Notes under the pieces: generated by a model
Told to the model about the DNA's origin: nothing
Database searches by the model: none
The model's input: the letters and a program-made list of their open reading frames with translations, nothing else
Origin: an uncultured Prevotellaceae bacterium
Lineage (GTDB): Bacteria > Bacteroidota > Bacteroidia > Bacteroidales > Muribaculaceae
Direction: 5' to 3'
Assembly (NCBI GenBank): GCA_900317835.1
Contig: ONIL01000019.1
Coordinates: forward strand, 865 to 54,049
DNA: 53,185 bases
In this document: positions 8,671-53,185 of the stretch, piece by piece
Layout: every line of letters starts with the position of its first letter
Position numbering within the stretch: the stretch's first letter is position 1
Translations under genes and position numbers: made by a program

Positions 8671-9918
8671 CTACTCACTGGTAGCCAAGAGCTCATAATT
8701 TGACTTAGAGAGTTGACGCTCGGCAAAATCCCGGGTGAGCACATAGCGCTTCTCATTCATCGACGGTGCCTGATACATGACATCAATCATGATGGTCTCG
8801 AACAGGCTGCGCAATCCGCGTGCACCCAACTTGTACTCGATCGATTTGTCCACGACAAAGCCCAGCACATCGTCCTCGATGACGAGTTCCACACCATCCA
8901 TTTCGAGCAGTTTCTTGTACTGCCGCACGATGGCATTCTTGGGCTCGGTCAAGATGCGCAGCAACGCTTCACGATCCAACGGCTCAAGATTAGTCAGGAT
9001 AGGCAGGCGGCCTATGATCTCAGGGATCAGGCCATAGCTGCGCAGGTCCTGAGGGGCAATAAAGTGCAGCAACTTGTCACGGTCGGCCTTGCTCACATGG
9101 TTGCCTGCGCCAAAACCCACAACGTGGGTGTTGAGGCGCTGAGCGATCTTGCGCTCGATGCCTTCAAACGCACCGCCACAGATGAACAGGATATTCTTGG
9201 TATCCACTGCGATCATCTTCTGCTCAGGGTGCTTGCGTCCACCTTGAGGAGGCACGTTGACCACAGAGCCCTCGAGCAACTTGAGCAGTCCTTGTTGCAC
9301 ACCCTCGCCACTCACGTCACGCGTGATCGAGGGGTTATCTCCCTTGCGGGCAATCTTGTCGATCTCATCAATGAAGACGATGCCTCGCTCGGCCTCTGCC
9401 ACATTATAGTCACATGCCGCCAGCAGCCTCGTCAGCAGGCTCTCGATATCCTCACCCACGTAGCCGGCCTCGGTCAGCACCGTAGCATCGACAATGGCGA
9501 AGGGCACCTTCAGCATTCTCGCTATCGTCTTAGCCAACAGTGTTTTACCAGTTCCCGTAGGTCCCACAATAATGATATTGCTCTTCTCGATATCAATATC
9601 ATCGTCACGGCGCTGGTTCAAGCGCTTGTAGTGGTTATAGACGGCTACCGACAGATAACGCTTGGCGGTTTCCTGGCCGATGACGTATTGGTCCAGATAG
9701 GCTTTGATTTCGTCGGGCTTGGGCAGTGATTCCATGTCGAGGTCGGTCAGCCGGGACTTGGCCATCTGTTGCAGGTACTCATGCGACAGTTCCACTGCAC
9801 GCTCGGCACACTCGTTGCAGATGCAGCCGTTCATGCCAGGGAGCATGAGTTCCACCTCCCTGTCACTACGGCCGCAGAAGCTGCAATACAGTGTCTGGTT
9901 ATCTTTCTTTTTCGCCAT
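8671..9918 (-). CDS. clpX: ATP-dependent Clp protease ATP-binding subunit ClpX
   Basis: This 415-residue AAA+ unfoldase recognises tagged substrates and feeds them to ClpP. The N-terminal zinc-binding domain has C12/C15 and C34/C37. Walker A GPTGTGKT is at about 119-126, Walker B is [10 protein letters not shown], and sensor 2 lies in GARGLRS. The length is typical. It lies 9 bases downstream of clpP and is transcribed with tig and clpP from the promoter at 12288-12318, subject to the tandem terminators between tig and clpP. Confidence 0.97.
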
Positions 9919-44094: not shown

Positions 44095-44859
44095 TCAGAT
44101 GAACCGTTCTCCCAGCACTTCCTTGATGGGCTCGAAAGAGGAGAGGATGTCGGCCTTGCCATGATGGATGGCAATCGAGTGCTCAAAGTGTGCACTGGGC
44201 TTGCGGTCGCGGGTTCGGGTCGTCCATCCGTCGCGCTCGGTGATGATATTCTTGCTGCCCATGTTGATCATGGGTTCAATAGCGATGGTCATGCCGTTAC
44301 GCAACAGGGGACCCGTGCCCCGACGCCCGAAGTTGGGCACCTCAGGATCCTCGTGGAGCTTGCGGCCCACCCCATGTCCACACATCTCACGCACGACGCC
44401 GTAGTTGCGGCGCTCGCAGTATTGCTGGATGGCATTGGAGATGTCGCCGATGCGGTTGCCGGGCACAGCGTGCTCGATGCCGACATAGAGCGACTCCTTG
44501 GTGGTTCGCAACAGCTGGAGGACTTCCTCGGCGACGTTACCGACACAGAAGGTGTAGGTGCTGTCGCCGTTGAACCCCTCGGGGGTGACGGCACCGCAGT
44601 CACACGACACGATGTCGCCATCCTCGAGAACGTAGTTCGACGGGATGCCGTGCACGCAGAGCGTGGCGGGAAAGCCATACAGCCCCTTGAAACCGGGCAC
44701 GCATCCTTGGGAATGTATATACTCTTCAGCGACTTGGTCAAGCTTGCGCGTGGTGACACCGGGGGCGACAATCTTAGCCACCTCGGCCAGTGCACCGGCA
44801 ACCACCAGGTTAGCCTTGCGCAGCAATTCGATTTCCTCGTCGGTCTTGAGATATATCAT
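44095..44859 (-). CDS. map: Methionine aminopeptidase type I, with a 7-residue deletion next to the active site
   Basis: This 254-residue dinuclear metalloenzyme removes the initiator Met. Metal and catalytic motifs are present: VHGIP (the conserved His), the SCDCG Asp, GDSTYTF Asp, GHGVGRKLHE His, AIEPM Glu and HFEHS Glu. But FPATLC runs straight into VHGIPS, while the family has about seven residues between (an S-V-N-E-x-V loop, among the most conserved in the enzyme). The junction is at 44655/44656 and stays in frame. Either the gene is damaged or the assembly lost 21 bases. It is otherwise in normal operon position between secY and infA. Confidence 0.9.
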   Translation of the reverse strand: MIYLKTDEEIELLRKANLVVAGALAEVAKIVAPGVTTRKLDQVAEEYIHSQGCVPGFKGLYGFPATLCVHGIPSNYVLEDGDIVSCDCGAVTPEGFNGDSTYTFCVGNVAEEVLQLLRTTKESLYVGIEHAVPGNRIGDISNAIQQYCERRNYGVVREMCGHGVGRKLHEDPEVPNFGRRGTGPLLRNGMTIAIEPMINMGSKNIITERDGWTTRTRDRKPSAHFEHSIAIHHGKADILSSFEPIKEVLGERFI

Positions 44860-44905
44860 AATGCGACTGAAAAACTTTTCAAAGACCTCTTAACGTCCTT
44901 TTCCA

Positions 44906-46240
44906 TTAACGGGAACGACCCTTGATTTTACCGGACTTCATCAGACCATCATAGTGGTGCATCATCAAGTGGGTCTCGATCTGCTGCAGGGTGTCAAGAA
45001 CGACACCGACAGTGATGAGCAGCGAGGTGCCACCGAAGAACTGCGCGAACTGCTGGTTGATGCCAAAGTAGCGGGCAAATGCCGGCAGGATGGCAACAAC
45101 ACCCAGGAAGAGTGAACCCGGCAGGGTGATACGCGACATGATGGAGTCAAGATACTCGGCGGTCTTCTTGCCAGGCTTGATGCCCGGGATGAAACCGCTG
45201 TTCTTCTTCATCTCTTCGGCCATCTGGGTGGGACGCACCGTGATGGCGGTGTAGAAGTAGGTGAAGGCAACAATCAGGATGAAGTAAACCACATTGTACC
45301 AGAAGCCGTTCATGTCACCGAAGGTGCGTGACAGCCATCCGCCAAAGCCCGAACCATCCTGGCTACCGAAGCCAGCGAGGGTGATGGGGATGAACATCAA
45401 GGCCTGAGCGAAGATGATAGGCATCACGTTAGCAGCATTCACCTTCAGGGGGATGTACTGGCGGGCGCCACCATACTGCTTGTTACCGACGATGCGCTTG
45501 GCATACTGCACGGGCACCTTGCGGGTTCCCTGGGTGAGCATGACAGCACCAGCGGTCACTGCAAACAGGATGACGATTTCAACCAGGAACATCACCAGAC
45601 CACCTTGAGCGGTGTTCAAGCGGCTGGTAAACTCTTGAACGATGGCACCAGGGAAGCGGGCAAGGATACCCACCAAGATGATGAGCGAAATACCATTACC
45701 GATACCCTTATCGGTGATCTTCTCACCGAGCCACATAATCAACATCGCACCCGCGGTAAGCACTATTGACAGATAGATCATCATCGGAGTGCTCATCTGA
45801 GCATGACCACCTGCAGCTCGCACTTGATACTGGAGGTTCAGCAGATAGGCGGGAGCCTGCACCAGGAGGATAGCTACCGTGAGGTAACGGGTGTACTGAT
45901 TGAGCTTCATGCGGCCGCTCTCACCCTCGCGCTGCATCTTCTGGAAGCTGGGTACTACCATACCCATCAACTGGATAACGATCGAGGCGGTGATATAGGG
46001 CATGATACCCAATGCGAAGATCGAGGCCTGGCCGAATGCACCACCCGAGAACATGTCGAGCAGCTGCATCAGACCACCACTAGTGAAGTTGCGCATGGCT
46101 TCGAGGTCGGCGGGGTTGATTCCCGGCAGCACCACATGGCATCCAAAGCGATAAATCACGATGAACAGGAATGTGGTGACGAGGCGCTGACGCAAGTCCT
46201 CAATCTTCCAGATGTTCTTTAATGTTTCAATAAGTTTCAT
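44906..46240 (-). CDS. secY: Preprotein translocase subunit SecY
   Basis: This 444-residue channel subunit of the Sec translocon has ten membrane helices. MKLIETLKNIWKIEDLRQRL, the plug region, GIGNGISLIILVGI, the PLKVNAANVMPIIFAQ segment and RPTQMAEEMKKNSGFIPGIKPG are characteristic. It is complete, with no deletion seen. It lies between rplO (7 bases upstream) and map. Confidence 0.97.
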   Translation of the reverse strand: MKLIETLKNIWKIEDLRQRLVTTFLFIVIYRFGCHVVLPGINPADLEAMRNFTSGGLMQLLDMFSGGAFGQASIFALGIMPYITASIVIQLMGMVVPSFQKMQREGESGRMKLNQYTRYLTVAILLVQAPAYLLNLQYQVRAAGGHAQMSTPMMIYLSIVLTAGAMLIMWLGEKITDKGIGNGISLIILVGILARFPGAIVQEFTSRLNTAQGGLVMFLVEIVILFAVTAGAVMLTQGTRKVPVQYAKRIVGNKQYGGARQYIPLKVNAANVMPIIFAQALMFIPITLAGFGSQDGSGFGGWLSRTFGDMNGFWYNVVYFILIVAFTYFYTAITVRPTQMAEEMKKNSGFIPGIKPGKKTAEYLDSIMSRITLPGSLFLGVVAILPAFARYFGINQQFAQFFGGTSLLITVGVVLDTLQQIETHLMMHHYDGLMKSGKIKGRSR

Positions 46241-46247
46241 CGTCGGG

Positions 46248-46694
46248 TTAGAGTTTTACGATTGAGCCACCGGCAGCGGTGATAATCTCCTCGGCCTTCT
46301 TGGAGAAGGCATGGGCTTCAACCTCAAGCTTGTGGCTGAGCTGACCCTGGCCCAAAATTTTAACAAGTTGGTTCTTACGTACCATACCAGCCTGCATGAG
46401 GTCGGCAACGGTAATTTTCTCGAGACTATTCTTCTCGGCAAGTGCATCAAGCACAGCAACGTTGATGGCCTTGTACTCCACGCGGTTGATGTTCTTGAAA
46501 CCACCCTTGGGGACACGGCGCTGGAGAGGCATCTGGCCGCCTTCAAAGCCGACCTTCTGCTTGTAACCCGAGCGTGACTTTGCACCCTTGTGGCCACGGG
46601 TTGACGTACCGCCCTTACCAGAGCCGGGACCGCGACCGATGCGAGTTTTCTTCTTATTTGAACCTACAGCAGGTTTTAAATCATGTAATTCCAT
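46248..46694 (-). CDS. rplO: 50S ribosomal protein L15
   Basis: This 148-residue protein has the Gly/Arg/Lys-rich N-terminal extension ([20 protein letters not shown]) that reaches into 23S rRNA. The folded C-terminal domain holds [20 protein letters not shown] and ends GGSIVKL. It is complete and lies between rpmD and secY. Confidence 0.97.
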
Positions 46695-46722
46695 AATGTT
46701 GTTTCTTTTTTAGTGTTAAGAA

Positions 46723-46905
46723 TTAATCAACATTGGTGACTTCCACCAGATGACGAACAGCGTTGACCATACCCAGTACCTGAGGAGTAGCCTCGAGGGT
46801 GACGGTGTGGTTCAGTTTCTTGAGACCCAGTGCGTCGAGGGTTCTCTTTTGACGAGCCGGACGATTGATGCGGCTTTTCACTTGTTTAATCTGTATCTTA
46901 GCCAT
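46723..46905 (-). CDS. rpmD: 50S ribosomal protein L30
   Basis: This 60-residue protein starts at MAKIQIKQVKSRINRP (46905); an in-frame ATG at 46971 overlaps rpsE and is not used. DALGLKKLNHTV and MVNAVRHLVEV are typical. It lies 16 bases after rpsE. Confidence 0.94.
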   Translation of the reverse strand: MAKIQIKQVKSRINRPARQKRTLDALGLKKLNHTVTLEATPQVLGMVNAVRHLVEVTNVD

Positions 46906-46921
46906 AACTAGTAAACAAATT

Positions 46922-47440
46922 TTAACCGTTAAACACCTTGTCCACAGTGATGCCACGATAGTGGGCCACAATAGCCGGACTGCGCATCTCGTCGAGAGCC
47001 TTGAGCGTGGCCTTCACCAGGTTGTGGGGGTTGCTCGAGCCCTTGGACTTACAAATAACATCGGTCACGCCGACGGTCTCAAAGACGGCACGCATTGCAC
47101 CACCAGCCTTCACACCGGTACCGGCGCTAGCGGGCTTCATGATGATGCGGGAGCCACCGTACTTGGCAACCACCTCGTGGGGAATGGTACCCTTGTGGAT
47201 GGGGACCTTGATCAGGTTCTTCTTTGCCACCTCGGTACCCTTGGAAATGGCCGTGGTAACCTCATTGGCCTTACCCAAGCCATAACCGATAACGCCATTG
47301 CCGTCGCCAACAACGACGATAGCAGCGAAGGTGAATGTGCGACCACCCTTGGTAACCTTGGTGGTGCGGTTGATAGCCACGAGACGCTCCTTGAGCTCGG
47401 CGTCGGCAGCGATCTTTACTCGATTATTCTTATTCAACAT
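46922..47440 (-). CDS. rpsE: 30S ribosomal protein S5
   Basis: This 172-residue protein is at the mRNA entry site and is needed for decoding accuracy. It has the double-stranded RNA-binding-like N-terminal domain ([20 protein letters not shown]), the [20 protein letters not shown] motif and [16 protein letters not shown]. It is complete. It lies 8 bases after the disrupted rplR. Confidence 0.97.
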
Positions 47441-47448
47441 AATGATTC

Positions 47449-47761
47449 TTAAAATTTAAGTCCGCCTTTGCGTGCGCCGTCGGCCAACGATTTAACTCTA
47501 CCATGGAACAGGAAGCCATTGCGGTCAAACACAACGGTGTTGATGCCAGCCTCGAGGGCCGGCGATTTCGCTCTTGTTACCCTCGGTGATTCCCTTAGAG
47601 GAAGCTGAGCAAAGGGTATTACCAGCAACGTCGTCGATGACTTGTGCATAGATCTGCTTGTTGCTGCGGAAGACACACAACCTGGGGCGCTCGGGAGTGC
47701 CACTGATGCGACCACGGATGCGGGCCTTGATCTTGTTTCTTCTATCTGATTTGGATATCAT
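47449..47761 (-). pseudogene. rplR: 50S ribosomal protein L18, split by a deletion and frameshift
   Basis: L18 carries 5S rRNA to the large subunit. Frame one (from the ATG at 47761) gives 67 normal residues: [20 protein letters not shown] onwards, with [19 protein letters not shown], to NKSEIA. Then the sequence jumps. Frame two gives 36 residues ([15 protein letters not shown] onwards) to the normal end ARKGGLKF at 47449. The joining base is a single unpaired G at 47560. About 11 residues of the conserved helix between the halves are missing, so both a deletion and a frameshift occurred. As read, the product would be a 78-residue truncated protein. Since L18 is essential, either the assembly is wrong here or another copy exists. 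Confidence 0.88.
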
Positions 47762-47781
47762 ATCGTTTCCTTTCTACTTAA

Positions 47782-48336
47782 TTACTTGGCAGCTGCCGTT
47801 TTACCAGACTTACGACGAATAACTTCGCCAACAAACTTAACACCTTTACCCTTGTAAGGCTCGGGCTTGCGGAAGGAGCGGATCTTGGCACAGATTTGTC
47901 CCAGGAGCTGCTTGTCGCACGATTCGAGGGTGATGAGCGGGTTCTTGTTGCGCTCGGTCTTTGCATCGACTGTCACCTCGGGCGGCATCTTCAAGTAGAT
48001 GGCGTGTGAGTAACCGAGGGCCAGCTCCAGAACTTGACCGTTGCTGGTAGCGCGGTAACCGACGCCGACAATTTCCAATTCTTTCTTGAAACCCTGGCTA
48101 ACGCCGACCACCATGTTGTTGATCAGGGCGCGGTACAGGCCGTGCTGTGCACGTGACTCACGCTCGTCGTTGGGGCGGGTGACCATGATCTCATTGTTCT
48201 CGACCTCCACCTTGATGTTGGGGTTCAGGGTCTGCTTGAGCTCGCCCTTGGGGCCCTTGACGGTGAGGATGTTGTCCTTTTGTTCAACAGTTACGCCAGC
48301 GGGGATGGCGATGTGCAATTTACCAATTCTTGACAT
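47782..48336 (-). CDS. rplF: 50S ribosomal protein L6
   Basis: This 184-residue protein sits near the factor-binding site of the large subunit. It has two repeated domains: MSRIGKLHIAIPAGVTVEQK at the start, LIRAL-like NNMVVGVSQGFKKELEI in the middle, and SFRKPEPYKGKGVKFVGEVI near the end. It is complete and lies 15 bases after rpsH. Confidence 0.97.
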   Translation of the reverse strand: MSRIGKLHIAIPAGVTVEQKDNILTVKGPKGELKQTLNPNIKVEVENNEIMVTRPNDERESRAQHGLYRALINNMVVGVSQGFKKELEIVGVGYRATSNGQVLELALGYSHAIYLKMPPEVTVDAKTERNKNPLITLESCDKQLLGQICAKIRSFRKPEPYKGKGVKFVGEVIRRKSGKTAAAK

Positions 48337-48351
48337 AGCTTATCTCCTCCA

Positions 48352-48753
48352 TTAATAAACGTAACACAAAACTTCGCCACCGATCTTCTGGTTCTTGGCT
48401 TCCTTGTTGGTCATGACACCCTTGGAAGTCGAGATGATGGCAATACCTAAACCATTGAGCACGCGGGGCATGTCCTTGTAGCCAGTGTACTGGCGCAGGC
48501 CGGGCCTTGACACGCGGGTGAGGCACTTGATGGCGCTAACGTGGTCCACGTTGTCATACTTGAGCGCGATCTTGATGGTGCCACGGGGAGAGTTCTCCTC
48601 CTCAATGAACTTGTAGTTCAGGATGTAACCCTGATCAAAGAGGATCTTGGTGATCTCCTTTTTGAGCTTGGAAGAAGGGATTTCAACGACACGGTGCTGT
48701 GCCTTGATCGCATTCCTCAATCTAGTCAGATAATCTGCAATAGGATCTGTCAT
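48352..48753 (-). CDS. rpsH: 30S ribosomal protein S8
   Basis: This 133-residue protein binds 16S rRNA helix 21; in other bacteria it also represses the spc operon. MTDPIADYLTRLRNAIKA at the start and the C-terminal GIAIISTSKGVMTNKEA and GGEVLCYVY are standard. Complete. Confidence 0.97.
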   Translation of the reverse strand: MTDPIADYLTRLRNAIKAQHRVVEIPSSKLKKEITKILFDQGYILNYKFIEEENSPRGTIKIALKYDNVDHVSAIKCLTRVSRPGLRQYTGYKDMPRVLNGLGIAIISTSKGVMTNKEAKNQKIGGEVLCYVY

Positions 48754-48836
48754 TATTGTAACTTGTTTTAAATTGATTCGACCTTGTCGAACAATATTTA
48801 ATACTTAATGTTATTTAATTGAAATAGTGGTTGAAA

Positions 48837-49106
48837 TCACCAGCTGGCCTTGCGCACGCCGGGGATGAGACCGTTAGAGGCCATCTCGCGGAAGTTGATG
48901 CGGGAGATGCCGAACTGGCGCATGTAGCCCTTGGGACGGCCTGACATCTTGCAGATGTTGTGCAGGCGAACGGGAGAAGCGTTGCGGGGCAGCTTCTGCA
49001 GTGCCTCATAGTCACCGTCCTTCTTGAGCTGGGCGCGCTTGGCTGCATACTTGGCGACGAGGCGCTCACGCTTTGCCTGGCGGGCTTTCATTGATTCTTT
49101 TGCCAT
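48837..49106 (-). CDS. rpsN: 30S ribosomal protein S14
   Basis: This 89-residue protein of the small-subunit head is the zinc-free form (no CxxC pairs). [30 protein letters not shown] and [20 protein letters not shown] are typical. An 83-base spacer separates it from rpsH. Confidence 0.97.
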
Positions 49107-49120
49107 AATTTAACTCTCAA

Positions 49121-49663
49121 TTATTTGTTGTTAAACGGGATTCCAAACTCCTTGAGCAGTGCGTAGCCTTCCTCATCGGTCTTGGCAGTGGTGACGAAGG
49201 TGATGTTCATACCGGTCATCTTGGTCACGTTGTCGATGTTGATCTCGGGGAAGATGATCTGCTCAGTGACGCCGACGGTGTAGTTGCCGCGGCCATCGAG
49301 CTTACCATTGACACCCTTGAAGTCGCGGATGCGCGGCAGGGCGATGCGGATGAAACGCTCCATGAACTCATACATGCGGTCACGACGCAGGGTAACGCGG
49401 ACGCCGATGGGCATCTTCTTGCGCACCTTGAAGTTGGAGATATCCTTCTTCGAGAGCGTCTGCACAGCCTTCTGGCCAGTGATTGCGGTGAGCTCGTTGA
49501 TTGCGGTCTCAATGATCTTCTTGTCCTGGGTAGCATCGCCCAGACCCTCGTTGAGGACGATCTTGACCAGACGCGGAATCTGCATGGGCGTGCTGTAATT
49601 GAATTGCTTCATCAAAGCGGGAGCAATCTTCTCCTCATATTGTTTCTTCAGCGTGGTACTCAT
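49121..49663 (-). CDS. rplE: 50S ribosomal protein L5
   Basis: This 180-residue protein binds 5S rRNA together with L18 and contacts P-site t[38 protein letters not shown] and the FPEINID and [13 protein letters not shown] segments are typical. Complete. It overlaps the stop of rplX by one base. Confidence 0.97.
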
Positions 49664-49992
49664 TACTTGATCTCCTCTCCAGATTTTTTAGAATAACGAA
49701 CTTTCTTGCCGTTCTCGTCCATCCTGAATCCCACGCGGGTGGGCTTGGGGTCGCGGCCGCTCTTGGGGTCAACGACTGCCAGGTTGCTCAGGTGGATGGG
49801 GGCTTCCTTCTTGATGATGCCGCCCTGGGGGGCATTGGCATTGGGCTTCGTGCTCTTGGACACGATGTTGACACCCTCGACGATGGCCTTGCCCTGCTCG
49901 GGCAGTACGTTCAGCACGCGACCGGTCTTACCCTTGTCGTCACCTGCCAGAACATAGACGGTGTCACCCTTCTTGATTTTTAACGTAGCCAT
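49663..49992 (-). CDS. rplX: 50S ribosomal protein L24
   Basis: This 109-residue assembly-initiator protein contains the KOW motif ([20 protein letters not shown]) and [18 protein letters not shown]. Complete. Its stop overlaps the rplE start. Confidence 0.96.
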
Positions 49993-50021
49993 ATATAGTT
50001 TATTGCTATTTTAAAGATTGA

Positions 50022-50387
50022 TTAAAGAACCTCGGGAGCGAGCGAAACGATCTTCATGTTGGTGGCGCGCAGCTCGCGGGCTACGGGGCCGAAGATGCGC
50101 GTTCCGCGCAACTCACCGGTATTAGTGAGCAATACACAGGCATTGTCGTCGAAGCGGATGTAGGAACCGTCCTGGCGACGGATTTCCTTGCTGGTGCGGA
50201 CAACGACAGCCTTGGAAACGGTACCCTTCTTCACCTCTGAAGCGGGGATAGCCTTCTTGACGGTGACCACGATGATGTCACCCACCGAAGCGTAGCGACG
50301 GCCTGAACCTCCAAGCACCTTAATGCAGAGGACTTCCTTGGCACCGCTATTGTCGGCAACTGTCAATCTACTTTCAGTCTGTATCAT
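50022..50387 (-). CDS. rplN: 50S ribosomal protein L14
   Basis: This 121-residue protein forms an inter-subunit bridge. [20 protein letters not shown] and [11 protein letters not shown] are diagnostic. Complete. It lies 9 bases after the shortened rpsQ. Confidence 0.97.
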
Positions 50388-50396
50388 AATAAATAA

Positions 50397-50546
50397 TTAC
50401 TTCGCTTTTTCGATGATTTCAACTAATCTCCACCTCTTGGTCTTGCTCAACGGGCGGGTCTCCATCAGGCGAACGGTGTCGCCGACGTTGCACTCGTTGT
50501 TCACAACCCCAATTCTTTCTTTTCTTAAATTACGTTTTTCTTCCAT
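50397..50546 (-). CDS. rpsQ: 30S ribosomal protein S17 with an internal in-frame deletion
   Basis: Only 49 residues, from the ATG at 50546. The start [15 protein letters not shown] and the end [20 protein letters not shown]...EKAK match S17, whose Bacteroidetes form has about 85 residues. Roughly 36 residues are missing between GVV and NNECN (junction near 50501/50502). The missing part covers strands 2 and 3 of the OB fold, including the KHP-Y-x-K rRNA-binding loop. The frame is kept, but the product could not fold as S17. It lies between rpmC and rplN as expected. Confidence 0.88.
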
Positions 50547-50566
50547 TGTCGTGATGATTGTTGGGA

Positions 50567-50764
50567 TTATTTGTTCTTGAGTTCACGAGCGCGGATTTCA
50601 GTCTTGATGCGCGCGATCAACTTCCTGTCAAGCGTGATCTTGGCCGGATTATCGAGCGGGGAAATCGTGTGCTGGATCTTCTCCTGAACATACTCCTTCT
50701 GGACCTGGTCGAGGCGATCCTGCAATTCCTTATCGGTTAATTCCTTGATATTTTCCTTTTTCAT
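50567..50764 (-). CDS. rpmC: 50S ribosomal protein L29
   Basis: This 65-residue two-helix protein sits at the exit tunnel. [20 protein letters not shown] and the end [14 protein letters not shown] are typical. Complete. It lies 14 bases after rplP. Confidence 0.95.
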
Positions 50765-50778
50765 AATCTGGTCAAATA

Positions 50779-51210
50779 TTAAACGAGTTGAGTGGGATCA
50801 TAGTCGCGACGAACGACAAACTTAGTGGCCACGGGGAGCTTCTGGGCGGCGAGGCGCAGGGCTTCCTTGGCGATATCATAGCTCACACCGTCAACCTCGA
50901 TGAGGATGCGACCGGGATGAACAGGAGCGACATAACCGGCAACATCACCTTTACCTTTACCCATGCGGACATCGGCAGGCTTGCGGGTGTAGGGCTTGTC
51001 GGGGAAAATGCGCAGCCAGATCTGACCCTGGCGCTGCATGTAACGGGTCACAGCGACACGAGCAGCCTCGATTTGGCGAGCGGTGATCCACTTGCTCTCC
51101 AGAGTCTTGATTCCGAAGGAACCAAAGGCGAGCTGGTTACCACGCTTGCTGTACTGGCGAGGATGCCCATCACTGGGACGGCGGTATCTTAATCTCTTAG
51201 GTTGTAACAT
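50779..51210 (-). CDS. rplP: 50S ribosomal protein L16
   Basis: This 143-residue protein organises the tRNA-binding site of the large subunit. [20 protein letters not shown], the [20 protein letters not shown] region, [18 protein letters not shown] and [16 protein letters not shown] are diagnostic. Complete. It lies between rpsC and rpmC. Confidence 0.97.
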
Positions 51211-51262
51211 TTTTAAATTCGTTTTTTATAGTCACACTTCAGCTTACTGGTTGTGACTGGGT

Positions 51263-52009
51263 TTAACGATTGTTGTTTCTCTTGCCACCGCGGAAACCAC
51301 GACGCTCGCCGCGCTCTCCACCACGACCACCGCCACCGCGGCGCTCGCCAGCATTGTTGGCAAAGTTAGGAGCAAGGTCGCGCTTGCCGTAAACCTCACC
51401 GCGGCAGATCCAAACCTTGACACCGATGACACCGACCTTGGTGTGGGCGGGCACGAGTGCATAGTCGATATCGGCGCGCAGGGTGTGCAGCGGCGTGCGG
51501 CCTTCCTTGAACATCTCGCTGCGGCGCATCTCGGCACCGTTCAAGCGACCCTTGACCTGGATCTTGATGCCCTCGGCACCCATGCGCATGGTGCTGGCGA
51601 TAGCCATCTTCACGGCACGGCGATAGGCAATCTTACCCTCGATCTGGTGAGCCACGTTGGCAGCGACGAGCTGTGCATCGAGCTCGGGGCGCTTAACCTC
51701 GTGGATGTTGATCTGAACGTCCTTGTTGGTGAGCTTGATGAGCTCCTGCTTGAGGGCCTCAACGTCGGCACCCTGCTTGCCGATAATGATACCGGGGCGG
51801 GCGGTGCAGATGGTGATGGTGACAAGCTTGAGCGTGCGCTCGATGACGATGCGTGCTACACTAGCCTTGGCAAGACGCTCGTTGAGATACTTGCGGATCT
51901 TGTCATCCTCTACCAGGGTATCTCCATATTTGCGGCCACCGTACCAGTTGGAATCCCAACCGCGGATGATGCCCAAACGATTACTGATTGGATTAACTTT
52001 CTGTCCCAT
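51263..52009 (-). CDS. rpsC: 30S ribosomal protein S3
   Basis: This 248-residue protein lies at the mRNA entry channel and has helicase-like function. [20 protein letters not shown], the KH motif [15 protein letters not shown], and the [20 protein letters not shown] region are clear. The C-terminal tail (about 222-248) is an Arg/Gly-rich stretch, as in other Bacteroidetes. Complete. Confidence 0.97.
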
Positions 52010-52014
52010 TTTCG

Positions 52015-52422
52015 TTATGCGTCTTTTTCTTTGTTAATAGTGTCCACGTAGATGGTCACGTGGTTAGAACGTTTGCGGATGCGATAGCCGCGACCCTGGG
52101 GGGCCGGACGAAGGCGCTTGAGCATCGGGGCTGCATCGACCATGATGGTCTTGACATAGAGCTCACCGCTCTCGGCCTTCTTGCCATTCTTCTGTTCCCA
52201 GTTGCTGATGGCTGACTTGAGGAGCTTCTCAACGTCGCTGGCAGCCTGCTTGTTGGAGAAGTGCAGGAGACCAAGTGCCTTGAAGACTTCCACGCCGCGA
52301 ACCATGTCGGCGACGAGGCGCATCTTGCGAGGCGAGCTGGGAATGTTGCGCAACTTTGCGAAGGACTCGCTGCGGCGGGCTTCCTTCTTCAAGTTAGCTG
52401 ATTCTCTTTTTCTTTTACCCAT
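52015..52422 (-). CDS. rplV: 50S ribosomal protein L22
   Basis: This 135-residue protein has a beta-hairpin lining the exit tunnel. The [22 protein letters not shown] and [20 protein letters not shown] motifs are standard. Complete. It lies 5 bases before the rpsC start. Confidence 0.97.
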
Positions 52423-52472
52423 TGTATTTAATTCTTTTTTGTTCTAGAAAACGTTAAATAATCCCGGGCCCA

Positions 52473-52742
52473 TTATTTCTTGTTGTTGCCGCTGTGACCA
52501 CGGAAGGTGCGCGTCGGGGCGAACTCGCCCAGCTTGTGACCGACCATGTTCTCGGTAACATACACGGGAATAAACTTGTTGCCATTGTGAACGGCGAAAG
52601 TGTGTCCCACGAACTCGGGAGCGATCATCGATGCGCGCGACCAGGTCTTGATCACACTCTTCTTGCCACTCTCATTCATGGCGTCAACCTTCTTCTCCAG
52701 CTTCACACTGATGTAAGGGCCTTTTTTAAGTGAACGACTCAT
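52473..52742 (-). CDS. rpsS: 30S ribosomal protein S19
   Basis: This 89-residue small-subunit head protein begins [20 protein letters not shown]. It carries [22 protein letters not shown] and ends [18 protein letters not shown]. Complete. It lies 21 bases after the original stop of rplB. Confidence 0.97.
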
Positions 52743-52763
52743 AATTAATCGAATTTAATCAAA

Positions 52764-53185
52764 TTACTTCTTTCTTCTTTCAATGATGTACTTCGAAGAC
52801 TGCTTCTTCGGCGCACGGGTCTTCAAGCCCACCACCCATGGGGTGATCAACGGGGTTCATCACGACACCACGGTTGTGGGGGCGGCGACCCAGCCAGCGT
52901 GAGCGGCCGGCCTTACCGGACTGCTCCAGAGCGTGGTCACTGTTACCAACCACACCTACGGTAGCCTTGCAGGCTGCAAGGACCTTGCGTGTCTCACCCG
53001 AAGGTAATTTGATGATTGCGTAGCTGCCCTCGCGGCTGGTGAGCTGGGCGAAGGTGCCGGCTGCGCGTGCCATAGCGGCACCCTGGCCGGGACGCAACTC
53101 GATGTTGTGAATTAAAGTACCAACAGGAATCTTGCTCAGTGGAAGCGCGTTTCCCACTTCGGGGGCCACGTTCTCACCGCTCTCG
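52764..53185 (-). pseudogene. rplB: 50S ribosomal protein L2, partial at the right edge and frameshifted by an internal deletion
   Basis: The right edge cuts the 5' part. The visible frame is L2 ([48 protein letters not shown]). After MGG the frame shifts: as read, the protein ends with an unrelated tail at 52780. The original end, [20 protein letters not shown], is found in another frame and reaches its normal stop at 52764. About 18 residues (the E-G-R-x-S-G-G-x-P region that reaches toward the peptidyl-transferase centre) and two further bases are missing at the junction near 52830. L2 is essential, so this needs read-level checking. Confidence 0.88.

What the first reader, a model, noticed from the sequence alone, without database searches (positions are those of the whole stretch)
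44095..53185. Four separate internal deletions within one ribosomal protein cluster
Within 9 kb, map, rplR, rpsQ and rplB each lack a short internal piece (about 7, 11, 36 and 18 codons), two with frameshifts. The other 22 genes of the cluster look full length, and the damage falls in highly conserved segments. Natural decay of four essential genes with all neighbours intact would be very unusual. It suggests local collapse or mis-joining in the assembly, perhaps helped by related strains sharing conserved sequence. If reads confirm it, the cell must have intact copies elsewhere or a very odd ribosome.
Basis: partly seen in the sequence, partly recalled or inferred. Interest (0 to 1): 0.75.

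Follow-up and report, generated by a model that had tools for sequence, protein, structure and literature searches.

The report
Assembly errors in ribosomal protein genes
Four essential genes in this gut-bacterium genome each appear to miss a short piece, but the evidence points to the computer assembly having joined fragments badly rather than to an odd cell, so the finding is ordinary apart from being a data-quality warning.

Summary
In detail: against intact relatives, map lacks 21 nt, rplR 29, rpsQ 111 and rplB 56; rplR and rplB lose frame. No second copy of the regions was found in the genome. Contigs of this genome end in exact 99-nt overlaps (4 pairs among 52 ends); a 17-N gap beside the window separates two copies of the same 99 nt; an exact 29-nt tandem copy shifts another gene's frame. 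So overlapping contig ends seem to have been joined by estimated distance, giving Ns, duplications or deletions. Among 80 named relatives, similar breaks occur in 10 of 23 RUG rumen MAGs, against 8 of 53 others raw and 0 of 53 after dropping recurrent variants and N gaps, a rule set after seeing the list. RUG sets mix idba_ud and MEGAHIT assemblies; local errors are suspected to be prominent with IDBA-UD (PMC7111523 passages). Loss lengths ignore reading frame (5 of 19 in frame). No reads could be examined. Not a biological feature.

The parts
44095..44859 (-). map (methionine aminopeptidase); 21 nt missing at 44655, in frame
   Evidence: G009 = L080 has its own 44-nt loss that includes this place
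47449..47761 (-). rplR (L18); 29 nt missing at 47559, frameshift
50397..50546 (-). rpsQ (S17); 111 nt missing between 50502 and 50503, in frame
   Evidence: no shared bases at the junction
52780..53185 (-). rplB (L2), 3' part; 56 nt missing at 52828-52830, frameshift; the 5' part lies on contig C12
   Evidence: 2 shared bases at the junction; L081 has a larger loss that includes this place
53087..53185 (.). last 99 nt of contig C14, identical to the first 99 nt of contig C12
1..99 (.). first 99 nt of the window, an exact repeat of the 99 nt on the far side of the 17-N gap at C14:848-864

Best explanation
The four losses are local assembly errors. A de Bruijn-graph assembler ended contigs at branch points, so that neighbouring contigs shared exactly 99 nt. 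The scaffolding step then joined them by a distance estimated from read pairs without checking the sequence. Too large an estimate leaves Ns between two copies of the overlap; a slightly wrong one leaves an exact short tandem copy; too small an estimate trims past the overlap and deletes real sequence at a near-blunt junction. Shown: the 99-nt overlaps, the N gap with duplicated flanks, one exact tandem copy in a gene, near-blunt junctions at the sites that could be resolved, indifference to reading frame, and concentration in MAGs of one project. Inferred: that a distance error of the scaffolder made each of the four losses, and that the assembler was idba_ud.
For: Contig ends share exactly 99 nt in 4 pairs among 52 ends of 31 contigs compared (one contig N-only); two further pairs share 84 and 43. 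Of 2 short N gaps in about 526 kb sampled, 1 is flanked by an exact 99-nt duplication. An exact 29-nt tandem copy at C4:9724 shifts a reading frame that resumes after it. Gene-breaking events: 10 of 23 RUG loci (18 of 526 genes) against 8 of 53 other loci raw (p 0.016) and 0 of 53 after dropping recurrent variants and N-gap loci (p 1.2e-6). Loss lengths of 14-115 nt, 5 of 19 in frame against 1/3 if blind. No second copy of the four regions. The RUG papers name idba_ud without a stated largest k; their MEGAHIT co-assemblies stopped at k 87, too short for a 99-nt overlap. [quoted passage not shown]
Against: No reads were available, so support at the junctions is untested. The project and assembler of this genome itself are unknown; only relatives are named. 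Deletion sites are not consistently the most conserved nucleotides, so why joins cluster here is unexplained. Two of the four losses lie inside losses of other RUG MAGs: non-random places, which shared branch points or real hot spots could both give. All 4 other MAGs that I judged IDBA-like by name are unbroken. The RUG sets also hold MEGAHIT co-assembly bins, and which RUG came from which was not known to me. PMC7111523 prints the end overlap for IDBA-UD as n, the largest k, whereas 99 would be n-1 for the default of 100 that I recall. One of the 2 N gaps has no flanking overlap. Short exact tandem units of 12-24 nt also occur in relatives.
Confidence: 0.95

Rival explanations
1. Graph collapse between co-occurring strains or repeats: the assembler skipped a piece because the two sides share a long k-mer.
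For: rplB and rpsQ each have a flanking 99-mer at or above the 96th percentile of cross-species identity; two losses lie where other RUG MAGs also lose sequence.
Against: Junctions share 0 bases in rpsQ and 2 in rplB with three relatives, and 0 in map with the one relative that resolved it, so no repeated k-mer explains those skips; rplR was not resolved. map and rplR sites are of low to middling identity.
Confidence: 0.1
2. Real deletions in the living cell, tolerated because intact copies exist outside the assembly.
For: The genome is 96.37% complete, so a small part is missing; two of four losses are in frame.
Against: No second copy of the four regions; the two other peptidase M24 genes lie in longer frames of 595 and 471 aa; like breaks concentrate in one assembly project; lengths ignore frame.
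Confidence: 0.02
3. A real recoding system, such as translational bypassing or trans-splicing, makes these genes work.
For: Only that the genes are essential by established knowledge.
Against: Sequence is absent, not interrupted, and no source for it was found in the genome; the relatives compared, G009 apart, have plain genes as far as their contigs reach.
Confidence: 0.005

Closest known systems
Local assembly errors of scaffolded short-read metagenomes (IDBA-UD and others; PMC7111523, passages seen)
   Same: Wrong local sequence within scaffolds; Ns inserted although the flanks overlap; contigs ending in perfect overlaps of fixed length at or next to the largest k.
   Different: The passages seen do not describe short blunt deletions as such, nor their frequency in ribosomal protein genes of one MAG set.
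Frameshifted 'pseudogenes' caused by sequencing or assembly (PMC11017572; search listing and start of abstract only)
   Same: Apparently broken bacterial genes that are technical.
   Different: Here the cause proposed is a contig join and the losses sized are 14-115 nt.

Membership tests
Scaffolding/local assembly error of a de Bruijn-graph assembler | Contig ends of the same genome share perfect overlaps of one fixed length | tested here: met
   99 nt in 4 pairs among 52 ends; two other pairs at 84 and 43
Scaffolding/local assembly error of a de Bruijn-graph assembler | Joins made without using the overlap (Ns or duplicate sequence despite overlap) | tested here: met
   N gap C14:848-864 between two copies of the same 99 nt; exact 29-nt tandem copy at C4:9724. 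The other short N gap has no overlap
Scaffolding/local assembly error of a de Bruijn-graph assembler | Events follow assembly project and ignore reading frame | tested here: met
   10 of 23 RUG against 8 of 53 raw and 0 of 53 after exclusions chosen afterwards; 5 of 19 lengths in frame. Lineage was not controlled for by a tree
Scaffolding/local assembly error of a de Bruijn-graph assembler | No single read supports the erroneous sequence | not testable with these tools
   No reads available
IDBA-UD assembly | The genome of the window was assembled with idba_ud | not testable with these tools
   G000 is unnamed; G009 equals RUG12777 by contig number and length, and the RUG papers name idba_ud and MEGAHIT
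Pseudogene decay of the lineage | The same losses, with the same ends, in independent assemblies | tested here: not met
   No event in the 80 named loci has the place and ends of the window's four; the map and rplB losses lie inside larger losses of L080 and L081 with other ends. No second genome of the window's own species was seen

The most novel reading that the evidence does not exclude
One or more of the losses is real and the cell tolerates shortened L18, S17, L2 or methionine aminopeptidase, with full copies in DNA that the assembly lacks; the overlap of two losses with losses in other RUG MAGs would then mark true deletion hot spots.
Probability: 0.01. Interest if true: 0.9.

Novelty: not a real feature. 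Interest (0 to 1): 0.1.

Why it matters
As biology it does not. As data quality it does: in this sample 10 of 23 RUG-set loci carry at least one broken ribosomal-cluster gene. These records stand for species in the collection searched, and marker-gene trees, pseudogene counts and protein databases draw on such genes. The combined signature (fixed-length contig-end overlaps, N gaps with duplicated flanks, short near-blunt losses) is cheap to screen for.

Tried and rejected
Second copies in the genome: none for the four regions (one search also gave a 54-nt match at 79% elsewhere, taken as noise). A family search for the map fold found two other peptidase M24 genes in longer frames (595 and 471 aa), not a second map by length. 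The idea that deletion sites are the most conserved nucleotides gave a mixed result and was dropped as an argument. A 7-aa gap in rplQ against G024 lies in a variable tail: G024 has +21 nt there, and three other relatives have +9 at or near it. Recurrent differences (rplN insertion at 109 in 3 loci; rplX deletion at 76 in 2; one rpsN insertion, L120, where other loci also have insertions) were taken as natural, and two non-RUG loci whose break touches an N gap (L107, L128) were set aside. Locus L088 counts through rpsK, near the fetched edge, since its rpsH loss touches Ns; without it 9 of 23. The script for shared bases at junctions did not resolve rplR, and resolved map against only 1 of 3 relatives. 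The grouping into RUG, IDBA-like and other was made by me from record titles (hRUG888 and Tb.RUG.166 went to other by their contig names). Paper searches gave listings; passages, no whole text, were seen of PMC6785717, PMC5830445, PMC7111523 and PMC5502489.

Full report
The window is bases 865-54049 of contig C14 (54,049 bases) of a 65-contig, 3.07-Mb genome that is 96.37% complete. Its nearest named relatives are uncultured MAGs labelled Bacteroidales, Muribaculaceae, Prevotellaceae or Porphyromonadaceae, mostly from rumen and other gut samples, three of them named Candidatus Sodaliphilus.

Observation. Aligned with relatives, the cluster lacks 21 nt in map, 29 nt in rplR, 111 nt in rpsQ and 56 nt in rplB. 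A gene-by-gene comparison with 13 relatives, G024 being the query, found breaks in G009 only (map, rplC, rplX); elsewhere variable loops and contig ends. By one rule, 4 of 24 genes tested in the window are broken. The genome holds no other copy of the four regions; two other peptidase M24 genes lie in longer frames.

Anatomy of the assembly. The last 99 nt of C14 equal the first 99 nt of C12, inside rplB, where the gene continues. Among 52 ends of 31 contigs compared (one contig N-only), four pairs share exactly 99 nt, one 84 and one 43. Just before the window lies a gap of 17 Ns, and the 99 nt on its two sides are identical, so two contigs that overlapped were set apart. I take these Ns as an assembly gap because of that duplication. 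The other short N gap in about 526 kb sampled has no such overlap. C4:9724 holds an exact 29-nt tandem copy; the reading frame there is shifted and resumes after it. As a control, loci of five relatives were scanned: all N gaps seen (17 rows, 16 distinct) were in G021 and none had overlapping flanks; exact tandem units of 12-24 nt occurred in all five, so short tandem copies alone are weak evidence.

Mechanism. One fault would explain all three kinds of error: contigs overlapping by 99 nt joined by an estimated distance. I recall, without having checked code, that IDBA's scaffolder trims by a negative distance without testing the overlap, and that its default largest k is 100. A too-negative distance deletes sequence beyond the overlap with no homology at the join. 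Junctions share 0 bases in rpsQ and 2 in rplB with all three relatives tried, and 0 in map with the one of three that resolved it; rplR was not resolved. That speaks against collapse through repeated k-mers.

Comparison across assemblies. Of 80 named loci, I grouped 23 as RUG, 4 as other IDBA-like names and 53 as other. Breaks by one rule: 10 of 23 RUG loci with 18 broken genes of 526; 0 of 4; and 8 of 53 with 8 genes of 1124 (Fisher p 0.016). Of those 8, three share one rplN insertion, two share one rplX deletion, one (L120) is an rpsN insertion where other loci also have insertions, and two touch N gaps. Dropping these, a choice made after seeing the list, leaves 10 of 23 against 0 of 53 (p 1.2e-6). 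The 19 sized losses (4 window, 15 RUG) run from 14 to 115 nt with 5 in frame, not different from one third, as expected of errors blind to coding. Relatedness among loci was not corrected for.

Recurrent places. Laid on one intact reference, the window's map loss lies inside that of L080 (= G009), and its rplB loss inside that of L081; rpsH is hit in four RUG loci, three of them overlapping. The ends differ each time. Shared branch points of the assembly graph would give this, but I have not shown that; nucleotide conservation at the sites is mixed.

Literature. The 2019 RUG paper used idba_ud 1.1.3 on single samples and MEGAHIT with k up to 87 on co-assemblies (passages of PMC6785717); the 2018 paper did likewise (passages of PMC5830445). 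A 99-nt overlap is too long for k 87, which favours idba_ud if this genome is of that project, which is not established. [quoted passage not shown] It prints n for IDBA-UD and n-1 for metaSPAdes, which does not match 99 with a maximum of 100; I leave that open. PMC5502489 (passages) reports many misassemblies for IDBA-UD.

Limits. G000 is unnamed, so its assembler is inferred. No reads could be examined, and no second genome of the same species was seen. Verdict: a confirmed observation, caused with high probability by assembly joins; not a biological feature.

Noticed in passing
L061 (G000 C4) 9724-9781: An exact 29-nt tandem copy shifts the reading frame of a gene, which resumes after it; by my reading of the translation the gene resembles an alpha-galactosidase (recalled, no family search).
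   Followed up: partly
L078, L080, L081, L083, L088, L091, L093, L094, L109, L122: Ten RUG rumen MAG loci carry internal losses or frame breaks in one or more of rplB, rplC, rplN, rplX, rpsC, rpsH, rpsK, rpsS and map.
   Followed up: yes
L080 (RUG12777) 11037 and L081 (RUG13812) 2759: A 44-nt loss in map and a 97-nt loss in rplB include the places of the window's map and rplB losses but have different ends.
   Followed up: yes
L078, L088, L094, L109 rpsH: rpsH is hit in four RUG loci, three of them at overlapping places, a possible recurrent break point.
   Followed up: partly
L047 1-900 (C14 start): Contig C14 begins in an array of similar repeats of a few hundred bases, and the 17-N gap lies in it (by eye).
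   Followed up: no
L137 rplO: A stop inside the rplO match in a buffalo rumen MAG (RGIG8108) that is not of the RUG set; the rule did not count stops.
   Followed up: no
L082 and L085 rplW: Two MAGs of different projects share a 22-aa insertion near residue 22 of L23, probably natural variation.
   Followed up: no
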